NCBI GenBank assembly: GCA_951812345.1
Contig: OX638295.1
Span: 124,001 to 188,000 of the forward strand
Reading direction: 5' to 3'
Source of the DNA: Rhodothermales bacterium
GTDB taxonomy: Bacteria; Bacteroidota; Rhodothermia; Rhodothermales; VXPQ01
DNA length: 64,000 bases
The translations under genes and the position numbers were made by a program. Numbering within the stretch: the stretch's first letter is position 1; each line of letters starts with the position of its first letter. This document shows, in pieces, positions 24,779-27,609 of the stretch. The notes under the pieces are model-generated. The model did no database searches. It was not told the DNA's origin and saw only the letters and a program-made list of their open reading frames with translations.

Positions 24779-24956
24779 CGAGGAAGCGCAGGCGGGGCTT
24801 TGCCTCCATTGCCGGCACGCCCGTATCGTCGTTTCCCGGGCGGAAAGCCGGTTCTACCTGTGCAAACGCTCCAGGACCGACTCGGCGTACCCGAAATACC
24901 CGCGCCTTCCGGTGTTGCGATGCGACGGGTATGAGCGGGATAACCCTCCGGCATAA
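24759..24956 (+). CDS. Small Cys-rich (zinc-ribbon-like) protein
   Basis: 65 residues with CLHC (Cys15, Cys18), Cys35 and Cys55, and the pattern SRFYLCKRSRTDSAYPKYP then PVLRCDGY. It resembles small conserved proteins found beside BtuF-like genes in several phyla. Four cysteines suggest one bound metal ion. The ATG lies inside the 3' end of the BtuF-like gene, so the two are translationally coupled and probably functionally linked. Function unknown. Confidence 0.75.
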   Translation: MATKTSDEEAQAGLCLHCRHARIVVSRAESRFYLCKRSRTDSAYPKYPRLPVLRCDGYERDNPPA

Positions 24957-24963
24957 CCCGGTT

Positions 24964-25482
24964 TCATGTCCCTGCTTTTATCAAGTTTTGCACCTCTGTA
25001 GCAACACCCTCCTGAAGATGAGCGAGTTGAACCTGCTCTTGGAGAACCGCCGCCGCAAGGAGGTCGGTGACGCACCTTCTTGATAACCGACAGTATCGCT
25101 TGTTCTCTATTGCATTAATAATGTGATGAGCCACTTTCCCAAGGCGTACGTAGTCTAGTCGGCATACGTCAACATGTAGCTGGGTCAGTTCCAAGACAGG
25201 TGTTTGCCCCTCGGTGTCCTTCAAATATTGACCGGTATCGAGTAGTTCGTTCTCGGCCAACCAGACAATTTCTATCTTTTCCACCCTATCGCGCGTAGCG
25301 GCTATCGCCAAGGCCACCTTTTCGAGTTCGTCCTTTGTCCCTGTAGGACACCGCCAGAAAGACAACGAATTGTCTTGCGTTCTCAGGTCGGCAGTTACCG
25401 CATCAGCCGCTATTTCGCCTTCTGCAAGTTGTCCTTTTTTATGGACCCACTTGGCGCGCGTGATCTTGCGAGCTAAGAACAT
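24964..25482 (-). CDS. Hypothetical protein, third gene of TIGR04255 operon
   Basis: A 172-residue soluble protein not recognised. It has a Trp/Cys-containing N-terminal half (LSFWRCPTGTKDELEKVALA), a region IEIVWLAENELLDTGQYL, and a mainly helical C-terminal half with an IINAIENKRYCRLSRRCVTDLLAAAVL segment. It lies 3 bp downstream of the 239-residue gene, so it belongs to the same minus-strand operon, and converges on the small Cys-rich gene with a 7-bp gap. Confidence 0.65.
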   Translation of the reverse strand: MFLARKITRAKWVHKKGQLAEGEIAADAVTADLRTQDNSLSFWRCPTGTKDELEKVALAIAATRDRVEKIEIVWLAENELLDTGQYLKDTEGQTPVLELTQLHVDVCRLDYVRLGKVAHHIINAIENKRYCRLSRRCVTDLLAAAVLQEQVQLAHLQEGVATEVQNLIKAGT

Positions 25483-25485
25483 CGG

Positions 25486-26205
25486 TCATTCTTGCAGGTC
25501 GTCTATGACTTCCAGAATGTACTCCTGAAGCCACGACTCCGGTTCGTTATGTAACATCAGAACATTTACCACTTCCCGTCCACCCCACGATTCTGCCGCT
25601 TGTACCGCGGCATCCCTGATCTCGATATCGTCTGTAGCTAACGCGTTGCGTACAAGTTGGGCGCGCCATGCGTCTGTGCCTATATGCGTTTGGCGACCTA
25701 AACAGCGCAAAACCGAGGACGCTAAATTCGGACGTTCCGTATCCAAACAGAAAGCGCTAAGCCAATCAAGAATACTTTGACTTCCGCTGGACCGCAGTGC
25801 ATTTTCAATGATCTGATCGGCTGGATGGTCCATTCCATCTTCAAAGGGCTCGATTTCAAAGGCCATCCGCAACCTGTACGCAAGCCGCTCTTCTTCCCGG
25901 CTTTCGACAAGCGCCTGCTCGGTCGCTGGTTCAAAGCAGGCTATATCCACAAGCATTGGAAAAAAACTTGAACCCATCGGATTGCCAACTACTACCTCGT
26001 ACCCCCGATTATGCAGCATTCTATTTAGAGACTCCGCTATTTCTTTTTCCAGTGACGCGGCGTGCGGAGAGATTGCAAATGAGCCTGTTCCCGGGGGCAA
26101 CAAACGTGGAGGATTATACGTGCCAGATTGATCCAGCGCGAATGAATCCTCCAGACCAAAAATGGAGGCAGTGGAATCCTGAAAAAAACGGGCTTCAGTC
26201 TGCAT
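25486..26205 (-). CDS. Hypothetical protein, second gene of TIGR04255 operon
   Basis: A 239-residue acidic soluble protein. The C-terminal half looks like short helical repeats of HEAT type (WRAQLVRNALATDDIEIRDAAVQAAESWGG and the following helix ending in VIDDLQE). The first half has a Gly/Pro-rich linker (PPRLLPPGTGSFAISP), then helices. The start overlaps the end of the TIGR04255 gene by 11 bp. Function unknown; coupling to both neighbours implies a common complex or pathway. Confidence 0.65.
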   Translation of the reverse strand: MQTEARFFQDSTASIFGLEDSFALDQSGTYNPPRLLPPGTGSFAISPHAASLEKEIAESLNRMLHNRGYEVVVGNPMGSSFFPMLVDIACFEPATEQALVESREEERLAYRLRMAFEIEPFEDGMDHPADQIIENALRSSGSQSILDWLSAFCLDTERPNLASSVLRCLGRQTHIGTDAWRAQLVRNALATDDIEIRDAAVQAAESWGGREVVNVLMLHNEPESWLQEYILEVIDDLQE

Positions 26206-26968
26206 CGAAGAGCTCCCTTGCTTTATCCGTGATAACGGTTTCGAACGCCGTTCTTTCCCGGTCTCTCAAATCACCGGCTTTCGCCAGCGCTTCGTCCCGC
26301 TTAACCAACTCTGTGGTCTCCCAGATGACGTCAAGATCAAGAAGAAATCCCTCTTGCCCTGGCGGAGTCTGGAGCAACCCTTGAGATAGAACAAGACGCA
26401 CATCGTCTTCATAGACACTGTCGATCCGGCTAATAAAGCCGTTCAGGCGATCAGGCAACCCTGGCACCCGCGGTAAGGCGCATTTGAGATAATCCTCAAC
26501 CTCTACCGTTTCCTGGGGAATCACAATCTTGTTTATGTACCGAATGCCGATCCGACATACTCCGCCCGGCTTCACCACCTCCCAATATGCATCGAGCGCC
26601 TCCGAAATGCGGGGCTGAAACTCTTCCCACCCACCTTGATCAGATCGAAGAGGATCGTGATAAGGACGCAACATATGAACGGTTAGCACGTCCTGCCCCA
26701 CTCCCACCATCCTCTTACCATTCTCCGTGACAAGCTGAATCTTTGCCATCCCTTCGCCATACCGCAGATTAGCGGGCTTGTCTTTATGAGTCTCAAGTCC
26801 GATTTCAACGACTCTTTGCTCCCGCGCCTTACCAGCATACTGGTTACCCAATACGTTCTGAAGCTTGCCGGGAATGGTAGGATCCCAATCTTGCCTTGGA
26901 CCGAAGCGAAACTCACAAACAGCCTCCTCTATGGGAGGATTTTTGTAGCGACGCCGGTGGTTTTGCAT
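26195..26968 (-). CDS. TIGR04255 family protein
   Basis: A 257-residue protein with the N-terminal family signature YKNPPIEEAVCEFRF, the downstream AKIQLVTENGKRMVGVGQD and the conserved RIGIRYINKIVIP block. TIGR04255 proteins occur sporadically in bacteria, often with a small partner gene, and their function is not established. It is the first gene of a three-gene minus-strand operon joined by an 11-bp overlap and a 3-bp gap. The upstream region (26969-27277) holds only a weak 44-codon open frame. Confidence 0.8.
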   Translation of the reverse strand: MQNHRRRYKNPPIEEAVCEFRFGPRQDWDPTIPGKLQNVLGNQYAGKAREQRVVEIGLETHKDKPANLRYGEGMAKIQLVTENGKRMVGVGQDVLTVHMLRPYHDPLRSDQGGWEEFQPRISEALDAYWEVVKPGGVCRIGIRYINKIVIPQETVEVEDYLKCALPRVPGLPDRLNGFISRIDSVYEDDVRLVLSQGLLQTPPGQEGFLLDLDVIWETTELVKRDEALAKAGDLRDRERTAFETVITDKARELFDAD

Positions 26969-26994
26969 GGATTTTCTTCTCTGAATTGATTCTG

Positions 26995-27129
26995 CTACAG
27001 GCTGCGAACGTTGAGGCGACCACGCTGTTCCAGAATAGCGACAGGATTAGCCCCGGTAACATTATCCTTGAAGCCGTTATCACGGAAAGTCACCGTACTG
27101 CTCCAGTATGTGCAGGGTCGCAATATCAT
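26995..27129 (-). pseudogene. Possible relic of a beta-helix repeat protein tail
   Basis: A 44-codon open frame on the minus strand reads STVTFRDNGFKDNVTG followed by PVAILEQRGRLNV. The pattern is like one turn of a parallel beta-helix repeat. No upstream continuation is visible, so it could be a fragment or chance. It lies between the TIGR04255 gene start and the small HTH gene; nothing else is seen in 26969-27277. Confidence 0.2.
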
Positions 27130-27277
27130 ACACGAATAGAACCGTAGAGTTGTTCGAGCGAACCAGTCTTCTTTTTAGGTGTTCTGTTGCGTTCAACCCA
27201 CACTGTCCCGGAGAACGGCTTCTTTAGATGGAACACATTGCCGGACGTACGATTCTCGAGCACTCGGAGGGAAAATA

Positions 27278-27487
27278 ATGGCTGACCAAAAGCACATCGG
27301 CGCGAATGCCGACCACCCGGGACCGATCCCGGAATCGGTTCAAGAGAACCCTGCGCGAAAGGAAGAACTCTTCCTGTTTGTACGACAAGCGCTTGAGCAA
27401 GAATATATCTCCCTTGGGCGCGCCGCCGAGATTCTGGGGCTCCACCGTGAAGAAATGAGAAAATATGCGCGTGAATGGGTGGGGTAA
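27278..27487 (+). CDS. Small helix-turn-helix protein, antitoxin-like
   Basis: 69 residues: a disordered Pro/Asn-rich N-terminus, then LFLFVRQALEQEYISLGRAAEILGLHREEMRKYAREW, a small HTH with the ISLGRAAEILGL pattern seen in UPF0175-type antitoxins. GGAGGG lies 7 bases before the ATG, supporting this start over an upstream one. Antitoxins of this kind normally sit next to a PIN-domain toxin. The next ATG (27488) opens only 26 codons, so no toxin is visible. Orphan or decayed toxin-antitoxin locus is inferred. Confidence 0.6.
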   Translation: MADQKHIGANADHPGPIPESVQENPARKEELFLFVRQALEQEYISLGRAAEILGLHREEMRKYAREWVG

Positions 27488-27609
27488 ATGGCATCCAACC
27501 CCCTCCACATCAACGAACGCGTAATAGCGCGTTTCACGGCGGAACTTGCCAGGCGCACTTCTACCTGATCACCTTCATCCCGAAAAAGAGACCATCCATC
27601 CAGAACACC

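What the first reader, a model, noticed from the sequence alone, without database searches (positions are those of the whole stretch)
24964..26968. Uncharacterised three-gene operon led by a TIGR04255 protein
Three minus-strand genes are joined by an 11-bp overlap and a 3-bp gap. The first is TIGR04255 (unknown function), the second has HEAT-like helices, and the third is unrecognised. They lie beside an orphan antitoxin-like gene, between housekeeping genes, a context like an accessory or defence cassette. This is the best candidate here for an undescribed system.
Basis: partly seen in the sequence, partly recalled or inferred. Interest (0 to 1): 0.52.

Follow-up and report, generated by a model that had tools for sequence, protein, structure and literature searches.

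The report
Three-part toxin cassette with TIGR04255 controller
Three neighbouring genes of unknown function form a mobile cassette that recurs across bacterial phyla, plasmids and prophages; it looks like a toxin (probably an ADP-ribose-transferring enzyme) held in check by a partner and a shared controller protein, a kind of arrangement not listed in the defence, family and paper collections searched here.

Summary
In detail: genes T (26968-26195, TIGR04255), H (26205-25486, HEAT-like) and C (25482-24964, unnamed) lie on the minus strand with an 11-bp overlap and a 3-bp gap. The trio is not unique. T-H-C recurs in order in Pseudomonadota, Myxococcota, Entotheonella and, with diverged H, on a cyanobacterial plasmid, Acinetobacter plasmids and Acinetobacter prophages near the integrase. 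In the window's genus it is present or absent at one site (empty site in two sister genomes). T is the shared first gene of a wider class: 50 of 59 T loci are followed within 30 nt by two small genes (control 3 of 39). Slot 3 varies and includes known toxins (PIN, MazF/PemK, HEPN, zeta); in one locus slot 2 ends in a DUF2281 antitoxin tail before its PIN toxin. So C sits in a toxin slot. Its predicted fold matches ADP-ribosyltransferases (first 25 rows of the structural list) with an R-S-HxD/E motif. Best reading: a tripartite toxin-antitoxin-like, probably anti-phage, cassette working like CmdTAC but without a recognisable SecB-like chaperone. Toxicity, neutralisation and phage defence are inferred. 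Defence-island enrichment was inconclusive. Novelty: new variant of a known kind.

The parts
26195..26968 (-). T: TIGR04255 protein, 257 aa; shared first gene (proposed controller/sensor or antitoxin chaperone)
   Evidence: NCBIfam TIGR04255 128 bits; model pLDDT 81, pTM 0.81; partner-swapping clade
25486..26205 (-). H: HEAT-like middle protein, 239 aa (proposed antitoxin/adaptor specific to C)
   Evidence: HEAT_2 E 2.9e-6; related to middle proteins of Acinetobacter sets (hhalign 91.7%; phrog_21208 E 5e-4)
24964..25482 (-). C: 172 aa, phrog_10743 family, predicted ADP-ribosyltransferase fold (proposed toxin/effector)
   Evidence: phrog_10743 E 2.1e-30; structural matches; R5, S41, H103-x-D105
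24941..27445 (.). segment absent from sister genome G249 (about 12 bp in its place): extent of the presence/absence difference
   Evidence: blastn of window against L179
27179..27487 (+). orphan UPF0175-like antitoxin gene beside the cassette (not part of T-H-C)
   Evidence: sub-threshold UPF0175 match

Best explanation
T-H-C is a horizontally moving three-component toxin-antitoxin-type cassette. C is the toxin: a small enzyme with an ADP-ribosyltransferase fold, predicted to use NAD+ to modify a nucleic acid or protein and stop growth. H, the HEAT-like middle protein, is the antitoxin or adaptor specific to C. T (TIGR04255) is the shared controller that keeps the H-C complex silent or stabilises H, and is the likely place where infection is sensed. 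Loss of T or H control, for example through a phage protein that captures T, would free C and abort the infection, as capsid protein does for CmdTAC. Shown here: gene order, conservation, partner swapping, known toxins and one antitoxin tail in the corresponding slots, mobile carriage, presence/absence at one site. Predicted: C's fold. Inferred: toxicity, neutralisation, trigger, anti-phage role.
For: (1) The C family is third of three in all 12 full-length copies examined: T recognised in 10, broken in L098, not recognised in L031. (2) 50 of 59 TIGR04255 loci are followed within 30 nt by two small same-strand genes, against 3 of 39 control genes of similar size. (3) Slot 3 holds known toxins by Pfam: PIN (L027, 1.5e-11), PemK/MazF (L105, 1.1e-18), HEPN (L036, 4.2e-6), zeta (L037, 3.1e-12). 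(4) In L027 the middle protein ends in DUF2281 (res 113-146, E 6.3e-7) directly before the PIN gene; PMC4963859 lists DUF2281 as antitoxin partner of PIN toxins (passages). (5) Middle families track slot-3 families while T is shared. One T clade of 10 with 99% SH-aLRT support holds 7 C-type sets plus PIN (L027), DUF7689 (L028) and L029; C also pairs with a distant cyanobacterial T lineage. (6) C's model matches ADP-ribosyltransferases in the first 25 of 50 rows: Tpt1 8tg4 Z 7.1, 2.7 A over 85 residues; KptA 9ld4 6.5; VPA0770 toxin 8gug 5.9; DarT 7omw 5.8; Rhs toxins, NarE, PARP1. S41 and H103 are invariant, residue 105 is D/E in 12 of 12, and an Arg sits on the first strand. (7) Mobility: prophage end near the integrase, plasmids, empty sites in G249 and G250, decayed copies in G247 and G277, GC 51.5% against a 59.5% median.
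Against: Foldseek alone gives C no significant hit (best E 0.22 in PDB; 0.053 in viral models); Z of 5-7 lies in the range the tool calls common; four of the five C models had lower pLDDT (68.6 to 53.9); profiles of C find no ADP-ribosyltransferase in the PDB by sequence. The usual last ART pair ExE (recalled) is HxD/E here. hhalign does not link C to the two other unnamed slot-3 families printed (F1, F2: prob under 1%). Defence-gene enrichment near T was not shown (94 against 89 PADLOC families). The first gene of the Acinetobacter prophage set is not recognisably TIGR04255 (E 0.17).
Confidence: 0.55

Rival explanations
1. Pure addiction or stabilisation module: the trio is a tripartite toxin-antitoxin set that keeps plasmids, prophages and islands in place, with no role against phage.
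For: Carriage on a small mobilisable plasmid, a large plasmid and prophages; toxins in slot 3; PADLOC enrichment inconclusive.
Against: Position at the prophage end near the integrase is typical of cargo (recalled); the T-HEPN set of G003 follows BREX genes; absence from the same chromosomal site in sister genomes suggests weak addiction.
Confidence: 0.25
2. C is an RNA 2'-phosphotransferase-like or other NAD+-using RNA enzyme (Tpt1/KptA-like) that repairs or edits RNA under stress, with T and H as partners, not a toxin.
For: The best structural rows are Tpt1/KptA.
Against: Only Tpt1 residues 92-181 align, so C lacks a counterpart of the N-terminal part; the same slot is filled by established toxins; sporadic, mobile distribution (3 of 296 genomes of the phylum).
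Confidence: 0.1
3. T is an enzyme, not a chaperone: it has the guanido/protein-arginine kinase fold and switches the H-C pair by phosphorylation or nucleotide binding.
For: VIA list for T is led by guanido kinases (4woe Z 8.4, 3.9 A over 182 residues; McsB 8wtc Z 7.6), spanning residues 5-253; charged residues E15, R139, R143, D211, D213 are conserved in 72-84% of 58 sequences and lie in strands of the model.
Against: Z about 8 is in the tool's background range; Foldseek prefers AdoMetDC with TM 0.28; no sequence match; the Acinetobacter T of L032 lacks several of these residues.
Confidence: 0.15
4. Ordinary metabolic or housekeeping operon of unknown pathway.
For: The window site lies between ordinary genes (BtuF-like and HflX-like by eye).
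Against: Presence/absence in the genus, phage and plasmid carriage, toxins as alternative third genes.
Confidence: 0.04

Closest known systems
CmdTAC (toxin-antitoxin-chaperone anti-phage system, PMC11618068)
   Same: Three genes; an ADP-ribosyltransferase-type toxin; an antitoxin; a third protein that controls them; anti-phage role there (abstract, sections 4 and 12 and passages read).
   Different: CmdC is SecB-related; T has no Pfam SecB match and is 257 aa. CmdT has an H-Y-[E,D,Q] triad, C has R-S-HxD/E. Order here is T-H-C. Function untested.
TAC modules with SecB-like chaperones (PMC5105189, PMC6377645; seen in search listing only)
   Same: A third protein controls a toxin-antitoxin pair; toxins vary between systems.
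   Different: Different shared protein; no chaperone-addiction tail was tested here.
DarTG and other ART toxin-antitoxin pairs
   Same: Predicted ART fold of C (DarT rows).
   Different: No macrodomain antitoxin (DarG's nature recalled); HEAT-like partner and a third gene instead.
phrog_10743 / Acinetobacter prophage set (phrog_13731 or 19817, 14576 or 21208, 10743)
   Same: Same C family in the same third position; related middle protein.
   Different: Function unknown there too; first gene strongly diverged.

Membership tests
TIGR04255 | NCBIfam model over its curated cut-off | tested here: met
   T 128 bits against 30
Tripartite toxin-antitoxin system | Three adjacent co-directional genes conserved as a unit | tested here: met
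Tripartite toxin-antitoxin system | Slot 3 is a toxin | tested here: inconclusive
   known toxins in slot 3 of other T loci; C itself only by predicted fold; toxicity not testable here
Tripartite toxin-antitoxin system | Slot 2 neutralises slot 3 | not testable with these tools
   one supporting case: DUF2281 tail before PIN in L027
SecB-type TAC (CmdTAC) | SecB-like chaperone as third component | tested here: not met
   by sequence: no Pfam match of any kind for T up to E 1; by fold inconclusive, as SecB is not in the listed rows
ADP-ribosyltransferase superfamily | ART fold | tested here: inconclusive
   first 25 VIA rows all ART-type, Z up to 7.1; Foldseek not significant
ADP-ribosyltransferase superfamily | R-S-E or H-Y-E catalytic triad | tested here: inconclusive
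   R on strand 1, S41 on strand 2, H103-x-D/E105; the classical ExE is not present
Known anti-phage defence system | Match to PADLOC-DB 2.0.0 | tested here: not met
   0 families for T, H and C up to E 1

The most novel reading that the evidence does not exclude
TIGR04255 is the universal control subunit of a large undescribed class of effector-swapping three-gene immune systems (T + matched antitoxin/adaptor + interchangeable toxin: ADP-ribosyltransferase-like, PIN, MazF, HEPN, zeta and several unnamed families), with T using a kinase-like fold rather than a SecB-like chaperone; the window carries a member with a new family of ADP-ribosyltransferase toxin.
Probability: 0.3. Interest if true: 0.8.

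Novelty: new variant of a known kind. Interest (0 to 1): 0.6.

Why it matters
TIGR04255 occurs sporadically in about 5-9% of sampled genomes in three phyla (12 of 247, 24 of 299, 13 of 146), and no paper in the library searched mentions it. If it is a general controller into which different toxins are plugged, it gives a handle to find and name many toxin and antitoxin families at once, and a second, non-SecB solution to the question of how tripartite toxin systems sense infection. The window's C family adds a candidate ADP-ribosyltransferase that is also carried by Acinetobacter prophages (26 IMG/VR viral contigs hold the gene whole or in part).

Tried and rejected
Unifying C with the other unnamed slot-3 families: by eye several share R...LS...HxD/E, but hhalign gives C against F1 0.7% and F2 0.1% probability (pairs under 20% were otherwise not printed), so they are kept apart. 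F1, F1b, F2 and F7 do link (F1-F1b 95.3%, F1-F2 71.5%, F1b-F2 53.8%, F2-F7 93.4%), and F3 with F4 (64.5%).

Finding C relatives in viral contigs with the window's own C or the A4 profile: none; they were reached only through the Acinetobacter copy. Genome contigs with C: none by pattern, though relatives exist.

Defence-island test: 132 neighbours of 20 T loci (133 called, one over 1100 aa dropped) gave 94 PADLOC families at E 1e-10, 121 control neighbours about 60 kb away gave 89; the counts do not differ, and the output does not tell how many proteins were hit. Qualitatively the test set holds PglZ, BrxHI, BrxA, AbiE and type I restriction parts; PglZ of G003 lies 1 kb before its T.

SecB as identity of T: no Pfam match; absent from the listed fold rows, which excludes nothing. 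Guanido kinase as identity of T: Z near background. Sigma-70 promoter scan: none found. PDB by sequence: nothing useful for T or C; H matches only designed repeat proteins. Papers; nothing on this trio. No claim beyond that library.

L029's third gene looks like a PIN protein by eye but has no Pfam match at 0.01. L024's C is split over two frames; left as it is.

Full report
What is there. T is TIGR04255 over its whole length (128 bits). H has a HEAT_2 match (E 2.9e-6). C has no Pfam or NCBIfam family but matches phrog_10743 (E 2.1e-30), a phage protein family of unknown function. None of the three has a PADLOC match up to E 1.

The trio is real and travels together. C relatives are third of three genes in Acinetobacter prophages (Ab105-1phi, MD-2021a) and Acinetobacter plasmids, on a Crinalium plasmid and in two genomes of G370's phylum, taken to be cyanobacteria. 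In all 12 full-length copies that I aligned, C is third; T is recognised in 10, broken in L098 and not recognised in the prophage copy L031 (E 0.17). The middle protein of the Acinetobacter sets is related to H (hhalign 91.7%); that of the Crinalium set has only weak HEAT matches. In the prophages the set lies at the end of the late genes; in MD-2021a a transposase stands between it and the integrase. 26 IMG/VR contigs carry the Acinetobacter-type C gene whole or in part.

It comes and goes. Within the genus, G248 has the cassette at the same site. G249 joins window position 24940 to 27446 with about 12 bp between, and G250 joins 24940 to 27607. G247 has only a piece of H and C on another contig, and G277 (same order) a T with stops. 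G294 and G252 of the order gave broken or weak C matches, and G251 of the genus (87% complete) none. The 3' end of the UPF0175 gene that remains at the G249 junction suggests deletion there, which I did not test. Cassette GC is 51.5% against a median of 59.5% (rank 16 of 248 two-kb windows). Across the phylum C is rare: 3 of 296 genomes.

T is a shared first gene. TIGR04255 was found in 12 of 247 genomes of the window's phylum, 24 of 299 of G367's phylum and 13 of 146 of G370's phylum. Of 59 loci with a T of at least 200 aa, 50 have two further same-strand genes of 90-340 aa at gaps of at most 30 nt; of 39 control genes of 200-320 aa taken from the same contigs, 3 do. The 59 were gathered in different ways, partly by likeness to the window's own genes, and include near-copies (L128/L129). 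The nine exceptions include two MazF sets, where a small middle ORF was missed by the rule (it is seen), and loci near contig ends. Slot 3 is occupied by different families: by Pfam PIN (L027), PemK/MazF (L105), HEPN (L036), zeta (L037) and DUF7689 (L028), and by families without Pfam match. By clustering the HEPN group has 5 loci and the MazF group 3, although L120 of the HEPN cluster has no Pfam match itself. Middle families follow the slot-3 family. In L027 the middle protein ends in DUF2281, which PMC4963859 lists as antitoxin beside PIN toxins (passages only). On the T tree a clade of 10 with 99% SH-aLRT support holds seven C-type sets together with L027 (PIN), L028 (DUF7689) and L029; 13 partner groups need 20 changes, 12 being the least possible, shuffled mean 38.8. 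So partners are inherited for a while and also swapped. The tree is the quick kind with long branches, and L032's place is unsure.

What C is likely to be. The AlphaFold2 model of C (pLDDT 81.6, six sequences; the four other models 68.6 to 53.9) gives no significant Foldseek hit (best E 0.22, an Rhs toxin). In the second look by VIA-align the first 25 rows are all of the ADP-ribosyltransferase superfamily (my assignment of the rows by name, partly recalled): Tpt1/KptA Z 7.1-6.5, VPA0770 5.9, DarT 5.8, several secreted toxins, NarE and PARP1. The Z values are in the range that the tool calls common; the uniformity of the list is what carries weight. W12, S41, W43 and H103 are invariant in 13 sequences, residue 105 is D or E in 12 of 12, and an Arg stands at or one residue from position 5 in all 12. 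Arg on strand 1, Ser on strand 2 and an HxD/E on a later strand correspond to the R-S-E arrangement (motif recalled), with the usual ExE changed. C profiles find no ADP-ribosyltransferase in the PDB by sequence.

What T may be. Its model (pLDDT 81, pTM 0.81) is best matched in the second look by guanido kinases including the protein-arginine kinase McsB (Z 8.4-7.3 for the leading rows, over about 170-186 residues), but Foldseek's own top hits are AdoMetDC with TM 0.28. I treat this as a lead. T has no Pfam match, SecB included.

How it most likely works. By analogy with CmdTAC (PMC11618068: abstract, sections 4 and 12 and passages read), C would be the toxin, H its antitoxin or adaptor, and T the shared protein that keeps H and C silent and can be titrated or switched by a phage component. 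What is shown is anatomy, conservation, swapping and mobility; the enzyme is predicted; toxicity, neutralisation, trigger and phage defence are inferred. The defence-island test was inconclusive: 94 PADLOC families among 132 neighbours of 20 T loci against 89 among 121 control neighbours, although one T set (G003) directly follows BREX genes. A pure stabilisation role therefore remains open.

Known or new. TIGR04255 is a named but unexplained family; no paper in the library of 5.39 million mentions it, and seven other searches found no account of this trio (listings and abstracts seen). The library lacks most subscription papers and all preprints. I rate it a new variant of a known kind (tripartite toxin-antitoxin-type systems), with a possible new class behind TIGR04255.

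Noticed in passing
window 27179-27556; L181:8217-8726: The orphan UPF0175-like gene is followed in the window by a 59-bp relic (27498-27556) that matches the end of a 169-aa ORF, PIN-like by eye, lying beside the cassette in sister genome G248; the site seems to be a spot where toxin-antitoxin genes gather and decay.
   Followed up: partly
L166-L173 (viral contigs): Eight IMG/VR contigs carry TIGR04255; in seven of them the third gene belongs to groups F1 or F2 (unnamed families, linked by hhalign at 71.5%, with an R...LS...H pattern by eye), and L166 looks the same but is cut by the contig end.
   Followed up: partly
L091, L104, L107, L114, L116 and L127-L129: Two related slot-3 families with an S/T-x-T-C-D motif by eye and no Pfam match for those scanned (L104, L127) recur behind TIGR04255.
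   Followed up: no
L102, L103: Slot-3 proteins of 214-233 aa that look papain/NlpC-like by eye, without Pfam match for L102.
   Followed up: no
L089 (G003:C1:1624028-1633744): The TIGR04255-middle-HEPN set directly follows BREX genes (PglZ E 7e-293) and is followed by what looks like UmuD/UmuC by eye; the Acinetobacter prophage set is followed by a 49-aa ORF annotated as lesion-bypass polymerase V.
   Followed up: partly
hits H1, H2 (NZ_CP077849.1, NZ_CP064203.1): Two Acinetobacter baumannii records in the plasmid collection are 3.7-4.0 Mb long and are probably chromosomes.
   Followed up: no
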